NCBI RefSeq assembly: GCF_030814715.1
Contig: NZ_JAUSVO010000001.1
Span: 372,001 to 436,000, forward strand
Origin: Kaistia dalseonensis
GTDB taxonomy: Bacteria; Pseudomonadota; Alphaproteobacteria; Rhizobiales; Kaistiaceae
Direction of reading: 5' to 3'
Length of the DNA: 64,000 nt
Shown in pieces: positions 12,394-18,073 of this stretch. A program made the position numbers and the translations under genes. Numbering within the stretch: position 1 is the first letter of the stretch; each line of letters opens with the position of its first letter. The notes beneath the pieces are model-generated. The model saw nothing but the letters and a program-made list of their open reading frames with translations, was not told where the DNA came from and searched no databases.

Positions 12394-13935
12394 ATGCGCC
12401 GCTCCAGGGTCCCGACCTCCATGACTATATTGGACGCGCCCGGCTTTCACGTTGCCCTGCTCGGTATAGCGGGCATCGCGGTCTGGTGGATCATCCCGCG
12501 TCGCCGTTCGACGACGCGGCTGTATGTGCAGATTGGCTTCTTCCTCGCGATGTCTGCTTTGCTCCTGGAAGATGTCGTCATTCCCTACGCGCCGGACACT
12601 GCGAACCGGGAAGTGATCGCAGCCGCCGTGCTAACGACAGCCAAGCTGTTATGGTGGGTGCATCTCGCCTGGGCGCTGATCGGCATTGTCCGCCTCTATC
12701 TCGTGTTCGAGCGGAGGCCGCGCGAAGCACGCCTCATTCAAGAGGTCGTCGTCGGCGTCGTCTATGTCGGCACGGCTCTATCGATCCTGTCATTCGTCTT
12801 TGCCGTGCCGGTGGGCACGCTCATCGCCACATCGGGCGCGCTCGCGCTTGTCCTGGGTCTCGCACTTCAGACGACGCTAAGCGACGTCTTTTCTGGCATC
12901 GCCCTTACGGTCGGCCATCCCTATGGTCTCGGAGACTGGATCATGCTCGATGACGGCACTGAAGGACGGGTCGTCGAGACCAATTGGCAATCCACCCATC
13001 TTCTGACGGCTGGACACAATATCGTCGTGCTGCCGAACAGTGTTCTGGCCAAACTGGCGCTGACCAATGTCAGCAGCCCCGATGAGTCCCACGGTCTCTC
13101 TGTGACGGTCAGGATCGCCGCGACGACGTCTCCCGCCGCCATCGTGGCAGTCATGCAAACAGCGCTCTCCAGTTGTGATGTGATTCTCGACGAGCCCGCT
13201 CCGCTAATTGTCATTCGCGACATCGATGATGCAGCGGTCGAGCTCGATCTCTGGGCCCGGGTCGCCAATGTCGAGGGCCGGGTCGCGGCCAGAAACGCGA
13301 TCGTCGATCTCGTCTATCGCCACAGCCGGGCCGCCGGGCTTTCTTTGGCTCCCCCTGCCGTGGCGGCACGAGCGGGCCTGTTCACTCATGTGGCCATGCA
13401 ACTGCCAGAAGCGCTCGAACTCATCCGCTCCTCTCCGGTCTTTGCTGCGCTCGATCAGGACGAAGCGCGGTCGCTCGCCGCATCCGCGCAATTCCGCCGC
13501 TTCCACCGCGATCATGCTGTCGGTCCACAAAGCGTGGCACAGCCATCGCTGATGATCATTCGAACCGGTGTGGCGATCTGGGAGGAAGCCCGCGGGGGAG
13601 GCACATTCGCGAGGGGCCATCTGGCGCCTGGAGACGTCTTCGACGCCGCCTCGCCGGCCGCCTCTGGAGACGGTTTCTCGTTGCGCGCAATGACAGAGAT
13701 GACGGTCTACGAAATCGAGGCCGGACGTGCCGCGCGGCTCCTCGCCGATCACCCCGAGGTGGCCAGAGAGATTTCGGCGGCATTCGAACGGATGCCCGTC
13801 TTACCAGAGCCTGCAAAGGTAAGTCCGTCGCAGGGGGCGTCGGGGTTGGCGCGTTCCCTTCACAACCTGCTGCTCTCGAAGTCTCGCGGCGATGCATCCA
13901 GCCGTCACGGGCCGCCAGCAGAGCCACGGAGCTGA
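12394..13935 (+). CDS. MscS-family mechanosensitive channel with cyclic-nucleotide-binding-like tail
   Basis: A 513-residue membrane protein. Hydrophobic helices lie near residues 18-35, 45-63, 85-104 and 118-138, followed by the pore helix rich in Gly/Ala/Leu (141-160) and the MscS beta domain starting VGHPYGLGDWIMLDDGTEG. Residues 345-465 resemble a cyclic-nucleotide-binding fold (SSPVFAALDQDEARSLA at its start, LAPGDVFD in the middle), although the phosphate-binding Arg is hard to place. MscS channels gate on membrane tension; CNB-bearing relatives may also respond to a nucleotide. The start is ATG 12394, preceded by a G-rich run; ATG 12421 is an alternative. Confidence 0.83.
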   Translation: MRRSRVPTSMTILDAPGFHVALLGIAGIAVWWIIPRRRSTTRLYVQIGFFLAMSALLLEDVVIPYAPDTANREVIAAAVLTTAKLLWWVHLAWALIGIVRLYLVFERRPREARLIQEVVVGVVYVGTALSILSFVFAVPVGTLIATSGALALVLGLALQTTLSDVFSGIALTVGHPYGLGDWIMLDDGTEGRVVETNWQSTHLLTAGHNIVVLPNSVLAKLALTNVSSPDESHGLSVTVRIAATTSPAAIVAVMQTALSSCDVILDEPAPLIVIRDIDDAAVELDLWARVANVEGRVAARNAIVDLVYRHSRAAGLSLAPPAVAARAGLFTHVAMQLPEALELIRSSPVFAALDQDEARSLAASAQFRRFHRDHAVGPQSVAQPSLMIIRTGVAIWEEARGGGTFARGHLAPGDVFDAASPAASGDGFSLRAMTEMTVYEIEAGRAARLLADHPEVAREISAAFERMPVLPEPAKVSPSQGASGLARSLHNLLLSKSRGDASSRHGPPAEPRS

Positions 13936-14320
13936 GGCCGCAAGCTCAACGATTTCCATGGGTTGAACCGCCCCAGTTTCGGTCGCATGCCCTTTGGTTT
14001 GAGGCAGGCCGCCAAGGCATGTTCTTTCAGCTCGAGCGTGTGGTGGGCGCCCGCGTGCGGCTCGACATGAAGCTGGAGTCTGGCGGGCAGCCTATGCCGA
14101 TAAGGGCAACGGCCACGATGCACCGCCACGCGTCGCGAGGGCGACCAGTACCGAGAAGTCCCTCCAATCAACATCGGGCATGCGGATTGAGCACTTGATG
14201 CCCGACTGTTTGCGATGGCTCGGCTGTCGAGAGGCAATTGCTGGAATGCCCATCATTCGGAACATTAGCCCAGTTGCCTTCGGGGGGGTGCGGCGGGAGC
14301 TGACCTTGCCCATACGGTGA
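13936..14320. other. Intergenic gap with a possible insertion-sequence scar
   Basis: About 385 bases between the MscS gene and the LexA-controlled promoter hold no convincing gene. TTGAACCGCCCC near 13963 resembles terminal repeats that I associate with some IS3-type elements, but no transposase frame or matching second end is visible. I treat it as unexplained. Confidence 0.25.
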
Positions 14321-14349
14321 TTGACTCACGGAACAAAACGTGAACATAT
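14321..14349 (+). promoter_or_regulatory. Promoter with alphaproteobacterial LexA (SOS) box
   Basis: GAACAAAACGTGAAC at 14331-14345 fits the alphaproteobacterial LexA site GAAC-N7-GAAC exactly. It lies between a -35-like TTGACT (14321-14326) and a -10-like ACATAT (14344-14349) spaced by 17 bases, the usual place for LexA to block RNA polymerase. The first start codon downstream is at 14383. The signal therefore points to DNA-damage induction of the 32-residue protein and perhaps, by read-through, dnaE. Confidence 0.75.
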
Positions 14350-14382
14350 GTGGATATCGCAGTGTTTTCAGAGGATAACGCC

Positions 14383-14481
14383 ATGACGATACTTGTTCGC
14401 GATCTCGCCGCTCTCGCAGCCCTCGGTCTCTTCGTCGCCACCGTCAGCCTCTGGTCGGACCTGATCGTCCACATCGTCTGA
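14383..14481 (+). CDS. SOS-controlled 32-residue single-pass membrane protein
   Basis: A short gene with AGAGGA seven to eight bases before its ATG. The product has a charged start (MTILVRDLA), one strongly hydrophobic stretch at about residues 8-28 containing LGLFVATVSLW, and a short tail ending VHIV. Size, single membrane helix and LexA box recall SidA of Caulobacter, an SOS-induced 29-residue inhibitor of cell division. I propose a similar role by analogy only. dnaE begins 109 bases downstream on the same strand. I recognise no named family. Confidence 0.65.
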   Translation: MTILVRDLAALAALGLFVATVSLWSDLIVHIV

Positions 14482-14590
14482 GGCGGGCGGCTGCGTCGAT
14501 CCGCTCGTGGAGTGGACGCGGCTGTTGTGGACCTGGCCGGGCGACTCGGAGGACAATGGCGGCTTGTTGCTCGGTCGAGAGGTCAACCGC

Positions 14591-17500
14591 ATGAGCCGTC
14601 CGGTCGCAGAGGATCGCCTCGTCAAGGATGTCGGCTTCGTCCATCTGCGCGTGCATTCCGCCTATTCGTTGCTCGAAGGCGCGCTGCCGCTGAAGACGCT
14701 GACCAAGCTCGCGATCGCCGACAAGATGCCGGCACTCGCCCTCACGGATACGGGCAATCTGTTCGGGGCGCTGGAATTCTCCGAGAAGATGGTCGAGATC
14801 GGCATTCAGCCGATCATCGGCTGCCAGATGGCGATCGACTTCGACGACGGCTTCGAGCCGAGCCGTCGTCCGCTGCCGGGTCAGAAATCGCTCGCCGATC
14901 TCGTCATGCTGGCCGCGAGCGAGGAGGGATACTGGAATCTGGTCCGCCTCGTCTCGCGCTCCTTCATGGAGACGGATTCGGGCGACCGCCCGCATATTTC
15001 GATCGCCGATCTCGAAGGCGCGCATCAGGGGCTCATCGTGCTGTCCGGCGGCGGCAACGGGCCGGTCGACCAGGCGATCCGGGTCGGGCAGGGTGCCTTT
15101 GCGGAGAAGCGGCTGGAGCGTCTGGCCGCCATGCTGGACAACAGGCTCTATGTCGAATTGCAGCGTCACAAGACGCCGGATGAACTGCGCACCGAGCCGG
15201 AGCTGGTTTCGCTCGCCTATCGCCACGGTCTGCCGCTGGTCGCGACCAATGAGGCGTTCTTCCCGAAGCGCGGCGATTACGAGGCCCATGACGCGCTGAT
15301 CGCCATCGCCGAGGGTGCGGTGGTGGCGGACGACAAGAGGCGCCGGCTGACGGCGGAGCATTATTTCAAAAGCCGCGCCGAGATGGTGTCGCTGTTCTCC
15401 GACCTGCCCGAGGCGGTCGGCAATTCGGTCGAGATCGCGCTGCGCTGCCATTACCGGCCGCTGAAGCGCAAGCCGATCCTGCCGCGCTTCGCCGGCGCCG
15501 ATGCCGATGCGGAGGAGGCGGAAAAGGCCGAGGTGGCGGCGCTGCGCCAGCAGGCACGCGACGGGCTGGAGAAACGCCTCGCCTTCCATGGCCGCGCGCC
15601 GGGATTGTCGGAGGAAGATTACTGGTCGCGGCTCGAATTCGAGCTCGGCGTCATCGAGAAGATGAAGTTCCCCGGCTACTTCCTGATCGTCGCCGACTTC
15701 ATCAAATGGGCCAAGGCACAGGGCATTCCGGTCGGGCCGGGCCGCGGCTCGGGCGCGGGCTCGCTGGTCGCCTGGTCGCTCACCATCACCGATCTCGATC
15801 CGATGCGCTTCGCGCTGCTGTTCGAGCGCTTCCTCAATCCCGAGCGCGTCTCGATGCCGGATTTCGACATCGATTTCTGCCAGGACCGCCGCGACGAGGT
15901 CATCAACTACGTCCAACAGAAATATGGCGCCGCGCAGGTCGCGCAGATCATCACCTTCGGTACGCTGCAGGCGCGCGCCGTGCTGCGCGATGTCGGCCGC
16001 GTGCTGCAGATGCCCTATGGCCAGGTCGACCGGCTCTGCAAGCTCGTGCCGCAGAACCCGGCCAATCCCGTCTCGCTCGACAAGGCGATCGAGGACGAGC
16101 CGCGCCTGCGCGCCGCCCGCGACGAGGAGCCGATCGTCGCCCAACTGCTCGACATGGCGCAGAAGCTCGAGGGCCTCTATCGCCACGCCTCGACGCATGC
16201 CGCAGGCATCGTGATCGGCGATCGCCGGCTGGATGCGCTGGTGCCGCTCTATCGCGACCCGCGCTCCTCCATGCCGGTGACCCAGTTCAACATGAAATGG
16301 GTCGAGAGCGCCGGGCTGGTGAAGTTCGACTTCCTCGGCCTGAAGACGCTGACCGTCCTCGAAACCGCTGTAAAGCTCGTCGCCAAGCGCGGGATAAAGC
16401 TCGATCTTTCGGCGCTGCCGCTCGACGACAAGCTCTCCTACGACATGCTGACGCGGGGTGAGACGGTCGGCGTGTTCCAGTTGGAAAGCCAGGGCATGCG
16501 CAAGGCGCTGGTCGGCATGCGGCCGGACCGGTTCGAGGACATCATCGCCCTCGTCGCGCTCTATCGCCCTGGCCCGATGGACAATATCCCGACCTACAAC
16601 GCCCGCAAGCATGGCGAGGAGAAGCCGGACTATCTCCACCCCCTGCTGGAGACGGTGCTGAAGGAGACCCACGGCGTCATCATCTACCAGGAACAGGTGA
16701 TGCAGATCGCGCAGATCCTGTCCGGCTATTCGCTCGGCGAAGCGGATCTTCTGCGCCGTGCCATGGGCAAGAAGATCAAGGCCGAAATGGATGCGCAGCG
16801 CGTGCGCTTCGTCGAGGGCGCCGTCAAGCAGGGCCTGACCAAGGAACGCGCCGACACGATCTTCGACCTCCTGGCGAAATTCGCCGATTACGGCTTCAAC
16901 AAGAGCCACGCGGCCGCCTATGCGCTGGTCGCCTACCAGACCGCCTATATGAAGGCGAACTATCCGGTCGAGTTCCTGGCGGCGTCGATGACGCTCGACA
17001 TGGGCAATACCGACAAGCTGAACGATTTCCGCCGCGAGGCGATGCGACTCGGCATTACGGTTGAGCTTCCCTCGGTCAACCGCTCGGGCGGCGTCTTCGA
17101 CGTCGAGGATGGGCGGATCCTGTATTCGCTCGCAGCGATCAAGGGCGTCGGCGGGCAGGCGATCGAGCATCTGGTCGAGGCGCGGGGTGAGCGCCCCTTC
17201 AGCGATCTCGCCGATTTCGCCGCGCGCATCAACCCGAAGATCCTGAACAAGCGCACGCTGGAAAGCCTGATCGCAGCCGGCGCGTTCGATGCCTTCGAGC
17301 GCGATCGCGCCCAGATCCTGGCCGGTGCCGAGCGCATCCTCGCCATGGGCGCGCGTGTGGTCGAAGGCTCGATGAGCGGGCAGAACGATTTCTTCGGCGG
17401 CGGCGGCGCGCAGCGCGAGCCGCTGATCCTCCCGCCGGTCGAGCCCTGGTTGCCCTCGGAGCGATTGCAGCGCGAGCATGCGGTGGTTGGCTTCTATCTC

Positions 17501-18073
17501 TCCGCCCATCCGCTCGATGAATATGCGCCAGTGCTGCAGCGGCTGCGCGTGCAGAGCTGGGCCGATTTCTCCGAGGCGGTGCGGCGCGGCGCTTCGGCCG
17601 GCCGTCTCGCCGGCACGGTCACGGCGCGGCAGGAGCGCAAGACCAAGACCGGCAATCGCATGGGCATCGTCCAGTTTTCCGACCCGACGGGCCAGTTCGA
17701 GGCGATTCTGTTCTCGGAGGCGCTGAACGAGTTCCGCGATCGGCTGGAGCCGGGCAATTCGGTGGTCGTGCAGGTCGGTGCGGAAGATCGGCCCGAGGGC
17801 ATCAGCGTGCGCATCATCTCGGTCAAGCCGCTCGACGAGGTGGATAGTGGGCTCAAGCAACTGCGTGTCTTCCTGCGCGGCGAGGAGCCCTTGCGCAGCA
17901 TTCAGCGCCATCTCGCGCGCGGCAATGGCGATGGCGATGTCAGCCTCGTGCTGCTGCTCGACCGGGGCGCGCGCGAAGTCGAGGTCCAGCTTCCCGGCCG
18001 CTATCAATTGTCGCCGCAGATCGCGAGCGCGCTCCGCGCCGTGAACGGCGTCGAGCATGTCGAGCTGGTTTAG
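14591..18073 (+). CDS. dnaE: DNA polymerase III alpha subunit
   Basis: The replicative polymerase subunit, 1,160 residues from ATG 14591 (GAGAGG about eight bases upstream). A PHP domain comes first (FVHLRVHSAYSLLEG). The C-family polymerase core follows, with catalytic Asp424 and Asp426 in PDFDIDF and Asp580 in KFDFLGLKTL, spaced as in E. coli DnaE. Then come the helix-hairpin-helix region and an OB fold (GTVTARQERKTKTGNRMG). Length and start match DnaE1 rather than the shorter DnaE2 of the imuAB mutagenesis cassette, and no imuA or imuB lies nearby. It may share the LexA-controlled transcript upstream. Confidence 0.95.
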   Translation: MSRPVAEDRLVKDVGFVHLRVHSAYSLLEGALPLKTLTKLAIADKMPALALTDTGNLFGALEFSEKMVEIGIQPIIGCQMAIDFDDGFEPSRRPLPGQKSLADLVMLAASEEGYWNLVRLVSRSFMETDSGDRPHISIADLEGAHQGLIVLSGGGNGPVDQAIRVGQGAFAEKRLERLAAMLDNRLYVELQRHKTPDELRTEPELVSLAYRHGLPLVATNEAFFPKRGDYEAHDALIAIAEGAVVADDKRRRLTAEHYFKSRAEMVSLFSDLPEAVGNSVEIALRCHYRPLKRKPILPRFAGADADAEEAEKAEVAALRQQARDGLEKRLAFHGRAPGLSEEDYWSRLEFELGVIEKMKFPGYFLIVADFIKWAKAQGIPVGPGRGSGAGSLVAWSLTITDLDPMRFALLFERFLNPERVSMPDFDIDFCQDRRDEVINYVQQKYGAAQVAQIITFGTLQARAVLRDVGRVLQMPYGQVDRLCKLVPQNPANPVSLDKAIEDEPRLRAARDEEPIVAQLLDMAQKLEGLYRHASTHAAGIVIGDRRLDALVPLYRDPRSSMPVTQFNMKWVESAGLVKFDFLGLKTLTVLETAVKLVAKRGIKLDLSALPLDDKLSYDMLTRGETVGVFQLESQGMRKALVGMRPDRFEDIIALVALYRPGPMDNIPTYNARKHGEEKPDYLHPLLETVLKETHGVIIYQEQVMQIAQILSGYSLGEADLLRRAMGKKIKAEMDAQRVRFVEGAVKQGLTKERADTIFDLLAKFADYGFNKSHAAAYALVAYQTAYMKANYPVEFLAASMTLDMGNTDKLNDFRREAMRLGITVELPSVNRSGGVFDVEDGRILYSLAAIKGVGGQAIEHLVEARGERPFSDLADFAARINPKILNKRTLESLIAAGAFDAFERDRAQILAGAERILAMGARVVEGSMSGQNDFFGGGGAQREPLILPPVEPWLPSERLQREHAVVGFYLSAHPLDEYAPVLQRLRVQSWADFSEAVRRGASAGRLAGTVTARQERKTKTGNRMGIVQFSDPTGQFEAILFSEALNEFRDRLEPGNSVVVQVGAEDRPEGISVRIISVKPLDEVDSGLKQLRVFLRGEEPLRSIQRHLARGNGDGDVSLVLLLDRGAREVEVQLPGRYQLSPQIASALRAVNGVEHVELV

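What the first reader, a model, noticed from the sequence alone, without database searches (positions are those of the whole stretch)
14321..14481. LexA-controlled 32-residue membrane protein in front of dnaE, a SidA-like division inhibitor candidate
Seen: an exact GAAC-N7-GAAC site placed between -35-like TTGACT and a -10-like hexamer, then a ribosome site and a 32-codon gene encoding one membrane helix. Known: this is the alphaproteobacterial LexA consensus, and Caulobacter SidA is a 29-residue SOS-induced membrane inhibitor of division. Inference: an unannotated SOS checkpoint peptide, possibly co-transcribed with the replicative polymerase. Genes this short escape ordinary annotation.
Basis: partly seen in the sequence, partly recalled or inferred. 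Interest (0 to 1): 0.85.

Follow-up and report, generated by a model that had tools for sequence, protein, structure and literature searches.

The report
SidA-like SOS division inhibitor before dnaE
A tiny 32-residue membrane protein gene with a DNA-damage (LexA) switch, sitting just before the replicative DNA polymerase gene, is a real, conserved gene and a distant relative of the Caulobacter cell-division inhibitor SidA, which sits in the same place in its own genome.

Summary
The box GAACAAAACGTGAAC (14331-14345), a TTGAC element at fixed spacing and the 32-codon frame (14383-14481) are conserved in 14 of 14 genomes of the genus, under purifying selection (pN 0.217, pS 0.490). Of 128 order genomes with a dnaE match, 60 have an exact forward box within 450 bp before it (shuffle mean 1.15); of 89 box-bearing regions in all sets, 81 have a short membrane ORF after the box, against 11% for pseudo-boxes. 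New here: Caulobacter sidA is itself this dnaE-leader ORF. NCBIfam's SidA model is over its cut-off once each in the 4 Caulobacter and 2 Phenylobacterium genomes searched, always just before dnaE. A profile built without named Caulobacterales scores these SidAs at 21-24 bits; shuffles and other membrane peptides reach at most 13.3. The SidA model misses the window peptide, so I file it as a SidA-like homologue, not an equivalog. FtsW binding and division arrest are inferred, not shown.

The parts
14321..14326 (+). -35-like TTGACT
   Evidence: TTGAC exactly 5 nt before the box in 15 of 15 close loci
14331..14345 (+). LexA-type box GAACAAAACGTGAAC (direct repeat GAAC-N7-GAAC)
   Evidence: exact; conserved in 15 of 15 close loci; enriched before dnaE across the order
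14344..14349 (+). -10-like ACATAT, 17-nt spacer, overlapping the box
   Evidence: sequence reading, inference; the strict promoter scan finds nothing; ACATAT stands there in 11 of 15 close loci, variants in L006, L011, L012 and L014
14371..14375 (+). ribosome-binding-like GAGGA, 7 nt before ATG
   Evidence: sequence reading; purine-rich stretch at about the same place in the close loci
14383..14481 (+). 32-codon gene for a SidA-like single-pass membrane peptide MTILVRDLAALAALGLFVATVSLWSDLIVHIV
   Evidence: conserved frame, pN<pS in 91 of 91 pairs; homology to SidA
14482..14590 (+). 109-nt spacer to dnaE; no terminator-like or promoter-like site found
   Evidence: simple consensus scan
14591..18073 (+). 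dnaE, replicative DNA polymerase III alpha subunit
   Evidence: NF004226 at 1483.9 bits, over cut-off; error-prone polymerase model NF004225 below its cut-off; Pfam domains; start codon chosen by comparison with relatives

Best explanation
It is a LexA-repressed gene for a SidA-type peptide. LexA bound between -35 and -10 keeps the promoter shut (inferred from the motif and its place). After DNA damage the loss of LexA opens it, and a transcript with a short leader makes a 32-residue single-pass inner-membrane peptide that, like its Caulobacter relative, acts on the septal wall-synthesis complex at FtsW and holds division until repair is done (inferred from homology to SidA). The same transcript probably runs on into dnaE, so that one operator couples division arrest to supply of the replicative polymerase (inferred: no terminator seen). 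Shown here: conserved gene, conserved box, place before dnaE, homology to SidA. Not shown: LexA binding, induction, co-transcription, FtsW binding, division arrest.
For: Box and frame in 15 of 15 close loci; pN 0.217, pS 0.490, pN<pS in 91 of 91 pairs. Exact forward box within 450 bp before dnaE in 60 of 128 order, 11 of 88 class and 18 of 28 named genomes; shuffle means 1.15, 0.9, 0.5; mirrored motif 0, 1, 0 forward and 2, 1, 0 reverse. 81 of 89 boxes are followed by a 22-45-aa membrane ORF, against 346 of 3084 pseudo-boxes; two of the eight misses (L217, L402) do carry a SidA-like peptide that the hydropathy filter passed over. NF033228 (SidA) is over cut-off in 6 of 28 named genomes, once each, just before dnaE. 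In the Caulobacter locus tested the gene on the other side is an IU_nuc_hydro protein, as is CCNA_02005 (PMC3667746, passage); sidA is CCNA_02004 (PMC11034885, passage), dnaE is CC1926 (PMC1839093, table passage). A profile without named Caulobacterales scores Caulobacter and Phenylobacterium SidA at 21.1-23.6 bits, reached by 0 of 1000 shuffles of each; best of 146 scored control membrane peptides 12.8. The box stays with the peptide away from dnaE in B. bacteroides and G069.
Against: The curated SidA model does not match the window peptide and is over cut-off in 0 of 289 class genomes. Many genomes have no recognisable copy near dnaE: profile hits of 10 bits or more within 500 bp in 70 of 128 order, 12 of 88 class and 22 of 28 named genomes; 23 of 52 order families have none. 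Some copies lack the box: 4 of 19 box-negative hits have no one-mismatch box within 120 bp, and 6 of 20 further hits have no exact box, among them the four of genus g77. Some supposed members score within their shuffles: two Asticcacaulis copies and Robiginitomaculum. The alignment with SidA ends at residue 21, so the C-terminal parts are not shown to be related. I found no functional data for a member outside Caulobacter.
Confidence: 0.77

Rival explanations
1. A LexA-controlled membrane peptide of the same family that stops division through another divisome partner (for instance FtsN, as DidA does), not FtsW.
For: Only the N-terminal 21 residues align with SidA. Caulobacter DidA acts through FtsN (PMC4211646, passages).
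Against: SidA, the only member with functional data that I saw, interacts with FtsW (PMC4211646). A changed partner was not tested here.
Confidence: 0.1
2. An SOS-induced membrane-depolarising toxin of the TisB/DinQ sort, controlled by an antisense RNA.
For: LexA-type control and a single membrane helix are shared; E. coli DinQ is an SOS-regulated toxic single-transmembrane peptide (PMC3567139, start of abstract in a listing).
Against: Homologous to SidA, which shares its place before dnaE. Box end to ATG is 37 nt, so the leader should be short, unlike the long leaders of such toxins (recalled). No Rfam match in 13900-14800. An antisense RNA was not testable.
Confidence: 0.06
3. The box serves dnaE; the short frame is a translational leader that tunes dnaE.
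For: dnaE is the usual neighbour and no terminator-like site was found in between.
Against: The amino-acid sequence is under purifying selection. The distance from the ORF to the DnaE match varies from about 30 to 306 nt (one doubtful ORF at 5 nt). In B. bacteroides and G069 the box stays with the peptide and dnaE has no exact box close by.
Confidence: 0.05
4. Chance motif plus chance short frame.
For: About 1.5 boxes per window are expected by chance.
Against: Conservation over many genera, against shuffle, mirrored-motif, reverse-strand and pseudo-box controls.
Confidence: 0.01

Closest known systems
SidA of Caulobacter crescentus (NCBIfam NF033228; CCNA_02004)
   Same: Short single-pass membrane peptide, LexA-type boxes before it, place directly before dnaE, ungapped N-terminal pattern R-[DE]-x-x-A-L-x(5)-F-V at the same positions from Met1.
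   Different: 32 instead of 29 residues, C-terminal part not alignable, not detected by NF033228. The four Caulobacter loci have a tandem pair of one-mismatch boxes, the window one exact box.
DidA of Caulobacter
   Same: Small membrane division inhibitor induced by DNA damage.
   Different: Independent of the SOS response; acts through FtsN (PMC4211646, passages). Sequence relation not tested here.
YneA (Bacillus), SosA (Staphylococcus), ChiZ (Mycobacterium)
   Same: DNA-damage-induced membrane division inhibitors; YneA shown, and the others with SidA only modelled at low confidence, to contact FtsW (PMC13396833, passages).
   Different: Other phyla; YneA and ChiZ carry a LysM domain. SidA was modelled on the other side of FtsW TM7 (same passages). 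Sequence relation not tested here.
TisB and DinQ of E. coli
   Same: SOS-controlled single-helix peptides (DinQ: start of abstract; TisB recalled).
   Different: Toxins under antisense RNA control (abstract for DinQ, recalled for TisB). Sequence relation not tested here.

Membership tests
SidA (NF033228 equivalog) | Match over the curated cut-off of 35 bits | tested here: not met
   no match of the window peptide at max E 1 or max E 10
SidA-like dnaE-leader peptides (wider group proposed here) | Statistically supported homology to SidA | tested here: met
   profile without named Caulobacterales scores Caulobacter/Phenylobacterium SidA at 21.1-23.6 bits, their shuffles at most 13.3; hhalign P 2.3e-5
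SidA-like dnaE-leader peptides (wider group proposed here) | Gene directly before dnaE on the same strand | tested here: met
   window; 14 of 15 close loci, one cut by a contig end
SidA | LexA box in the promoter | tested here: met
   motif, place and conservation; LexA binding itself not tested
SidA | About 30 residues with a single membrane-spanning segment | tested here: met
   32 residues, hydropathy 2.04; membrane location itself not tested
SidA | SOS induction | not testable with these tools
   needs RNA data
SidA | Interacts with FtsW and blocks division | not testable with these tools
   needs experiment or modelling of a complex
TisB/DinQ-like toxin | Long structured leader with antisense RNA (recalled) | tested here: inconclusive
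   37 nt from box end to ATG; no Rfam match; antisense RNA not testable

The most novel reading that the evidence does not exclude
SidA is not a Caulobacter speciality. It is the best-studied member of an old peptide family that forms the first cistron before dnaE in much of the Hyphomicrobiales and Caulobacterales and, patchily, in other Alphaproteobacteria, so that one LexA operator ties division arrest to the supply of the replicative polymerase; in the genomes searched the curated SidA model is over its cut-off only in Caulobacter and Phenylobacterium.
Probability: 0.62. Interest if true: 0.8.

Novelty: new variant of a known kind. Interest (0 to 1): 0.68.

Why it matters
In the passages that I read, SulA is described as poorly conserved outside its own group and SidA is described for Caulobacter only, so how other Alphaproteobacteria halt division after DNA damage looks open. 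A candidate found by sequence in many genera, with a studied relative that interacts with FtsW, makes this directly testable. It also suggests that the replicative polymerase gene shares an SOS promoter with the division brake.

Tried and rejected
Rejected: the 43-codon GTG start at 14350 (not conserved). Pfam, NCBIfam, PHROGs, PADLOC and Rfam gave no match for the window peptide or region. The strict promoter and terminator scans gave nothing, weak evidence either way. Weak order-level profile hits inside long frames (among 135 of 297 genomes with a hit at E 0.1) were treated as chance. The box count of the window alone was rejected as evidence.

Limits. The profile (79 peptides) was trained on strict-box peptides, so the counts for box-bearing genomes are partly circular; the independent part is the box-negative genomes (12 of 68 order, 1 of 77 class, 6 of 10 named at 10 bits; 0 on the reverse strand). 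The shuffles are Markov samples. Of 134 class genomes with a dnaE match I examined 90 (88, plus two counted in the order set) and left 44 unexamined; of the order I examined all 128 with a match. Only 28 of the 80 named loci were followed up. The Mantel test used only 40 residues of DnaE. pN and pS are uncorrected proportions. My dnaE motif missed two cases (L440, L442), seen. The papers of Modell 2011 and Erill 2004 are not held; supplements were not readable.

Full report
What is there. At 14321-14481 the window holds, in order, TTGACT, the exact direct repeat GAAC-N7-GAAC, a -10-like ACATAT, GAGGA, and a 32-codon frame MTILVRDLAALAALGLFVATVSLWSDLIVHIV that ends at 14481. The gene before it (12394-13935) matches the MscS channel beta-domain, and the gene after it (from about 14591) is dnaE, over the curated cut-off of the replicative DNA polymerase III alpha model and under that of the error-prone polymerase model. 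That the genome belongs to the Hyphomicrobiales is inferred from its DnaE: of the 28 named genomes the closest are Microvirga and Bradyrhizobium.

Is it real? About 1.5 such boxes are expected per window by chance, so the box alone means little. A tblastn of the 32 residues found the frame in all 14 genomes of the genus among 61 searched. In the 14 genus loci and one further locus of the family (L012) the box is exact, begins 49-53 bp before the start codon, and has TTGAC 5 nt before it; dnaE follows in 14 of 15, the last being cut by a contig end. Over the 14 genus sequences pN is 0.217 and pS 0.490, pN is below pS in 91 of 91 pairs, and variable columns by codon position are 18, 11 and 29 of 31. 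The frame codes for a protein under selection.

Is the box a LexA box here? I looked at 30 of the 35 places in this genome that match GAACA-N6-GAAC. Boxes precede genes whose products match the Pfam families SSB, LexA (DNA-binding and S24 domains), IMS polymerase and methyladenine glycosylase; in the last case the box overlaps the first ATG of the frame as I took it. Beside the ssb box and another box lie genes that read as uvrA and as a YedK/SRAP-like protein, by eye only (the short pieces scanned gave no Pfam match). This is usual SOS content (established knowledge). Many of the other places lie inside long frames and look like chance. The published Caulobacter box is GTTC-N7-GTTC, the reverse complement (PMC9578287, table passage).

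How far does it go? With a 75-residue piece of DnaE I located dnaE in 128 of 130 genomes of the order, 134 of 142 of the class and 28 of 28 named genomes reached through a CtrA scan, and examined the DNA before it in 128, 88 and 28. Within 450 bp an exact forward box is there in 60, 11 and 18; Markov shuffles give means of 1.15, 0.9 and 0.5 (largest 5, 5, 3); the mirrored motif occurs forward in 0, 1, 0 and reverse in 2, 1, 0; the box in reverse orientation occurs in 9, 6 and 6. Of the 89 box-bearing regions 81 (56 order, 9 class, 16 named) have a 22-45-aa membrane ORF starting 10-110 nt after the box; with pseudo-boxes in box-negative regions this happens in 346 of 3084 trials, 11%. Of the eight misses, L217 and L402 do carry a SidA-like peptide that the hydropathy filter passed over. 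The median from box end to ATG is 32 nt. A profile of 79 peptides without named Caulobacterales finds a copy at 10 bits or more within 500 bp before dnaE in 70 of 128, 12 of 88 and 22 of 28 genomes, 0 on the reverse strand; in box-negative genomes, which did not train it, in 12 of 68, 1 of 77 and 6 of 10. Of these 19, 15 have a box with at most one mismatch within 120 bp; shuffled stretches have one in 53 of 1220. Peptide distances follow DnaE distances (Mantel r 0.43, 0 of 999 permutations as high, 104 loci), as expected for vertical descent. Against a universal gene: 23 of the 52 order families sampled have no copy within 500 bp of dnaE, and 76 of 88 class genomes have none.

The link to SidA. 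In four of the four Caulobacter genomes searched the ORF before dnaE is a 29-residue peptide of the form MVRIARESLALVSV..FVWMMC.VAQ.VA. NCBIfam's SidA model (NF033228, cut-off 35 bits) gives two Caulobacter copies 71.7 and 72.4 bits and a Phenylobacterium copy 69.3. Over the 28 named genomes it is over cut-off in six (four Caulobacter, two Phenylobacterium), once per genome, each time 36-45 nt before the DnaE match; of five further genomes with weaker matches only, four have the best one just before dnaE and one (Brevundimonas bacteroides) has it elsewhere. In the class sample it is over cut-off in 0 of 289; 20 genomes have weaker matches, of which I examined four: two (G617, G374) lie before dnaE with two exact boxes each, two (L412, L413) have no exact box and no dnaE. 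Locus numbers in print agree: sidA is CCNA_02004 (PMC10769358 and PMC11034885, passages), CCNA_02005 is an inosine-uridine preferring nucleoside hydrolase (PMC3667746, passage), dnaE is CC1926 (PMC1839093, table passage), and the gene on the far side of the peptide in the Caulobacter locus I tested is an IU_nuc_hydro protein. So sidA is the dnaE-leader ORF of Caulobacter.

Homology with the window group. The profile built without them scores Caulobacter and Phenylobacterium SidA at 21.1-23.6 bits; their 1000 shuffles each have means of 1.1-1.5 and maxima of 9.7-13.3. Of 150 other short membrane peptides and helices 146 were scored, the best at 12.8 bits. Not all supposed members do so well: two Asticcacaulis copies (8.2, 9.1) and the Robiginitomaculum copy (5.9) lie within the range of their shuffles. 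A profile-profile alignment of the window group (A1, 21 sequences) with seven SidA-type peptides is ungapped from Met1 to residue 21, probability 76%, P 2.3e-5; the shared pattern is R-[DE]-x-x-A-L-x(5)-F-V. The curated SidA model gives no match to the window peptide at E 10. I therefore call it SidA-like and not SidA.

Box and peptide belong together. In Brevundimonas bacteroides dnaE has no exact box within 600 bp, while a SidA-like peptide on another contig has an exact box beginning 36 bp before its start. So the box goes with the peptide, which speaks against a box that serves dnaE alone. Of 20 further order-level profile hits that I chose and fetched, 14 have an exact box upstream and 16 are followed by dnaE within the stretch. 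The six without an exact box are L428, L430 and the four of genus g77 (L433, L434, L437, L441), so LexA control is not universal or uses a diverged site there.

How it most likely works. Shown: a conserved peptide gene behind a conserved LexA-type operator, homologous to SidA, usually before dnaE where it is found. From print for SidA in Caulobacter: SOS-induced, 29 residues, inner membrane, inhibits division by interacting with FtsW (PMC4211646, passages); a lexA mutant filaments because of sidA (PMC12700426, passage); a model places SidA at FtsW TM7 with low confidence (PMC13396833, passages). Inferred: the same action here, and transcription through into dnaE (no terminator-like site in the 109-nt spacer).

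Print. Searches of the held library for SidA with dnaE and Caulobacter (0 papers), SidA with homologue and alphaproteobacterial terms (11 papers), SidA or FtsW with rhizobial genera and LexA (23 papers, 15 listed) and LexA with dnaE and Rhizobium (5 papers) list no title or start of abstract that reports SidA relatives outside Caulobacterales or the sidA-dnaE neighbourhood. I read listings and passages only, and most subscription journals are not held, so novelty is not proved.

Noticed in passing
L425 (Brevundimonas bacteroides): SidA-like peptide gene away from dnaE that keeps an exact LexA-type box; a RelA/SpoT-like frame (by eye) lies upstream.
   Followed up: partly
L198, L199, L200, L203, L205, L206: In Bradyrhizobium, Tardiphaga, Rhodopseudomonas and Afipia the forward GAAC-N7-GAAC box is followed 3 bp later by an exact GTTC-N7-GTTC, perhaps a double operator.
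   Followed up: no
L216 (Brevundimonas sp. SSC2): Box present before dnaE but the SidA-like frame departs from the family after about 18 residues; possibly a decayed copy.
   Followed up: no
L433, L434: Two genomes of genus g77 carry a family-like peptide with no exact box and no dnaE motif in the stretch fetched; one of them, G109, also has a copy before dnaE (L286).
   Followed up: partly
L345, L347, L348, L349: Genomes of only 1.3-1.4 Mb (family f4) keep an exact box and a short membrane ORF before dnaE.
   Followed up: no
L039, L049, L054: Own-genome boxes before an MFS-transporter-like gene and an elongation-factor-G-like gene, and beside a YedK/SRAP-like gene (names by eye): further SOS candidates.
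   Followed up: no
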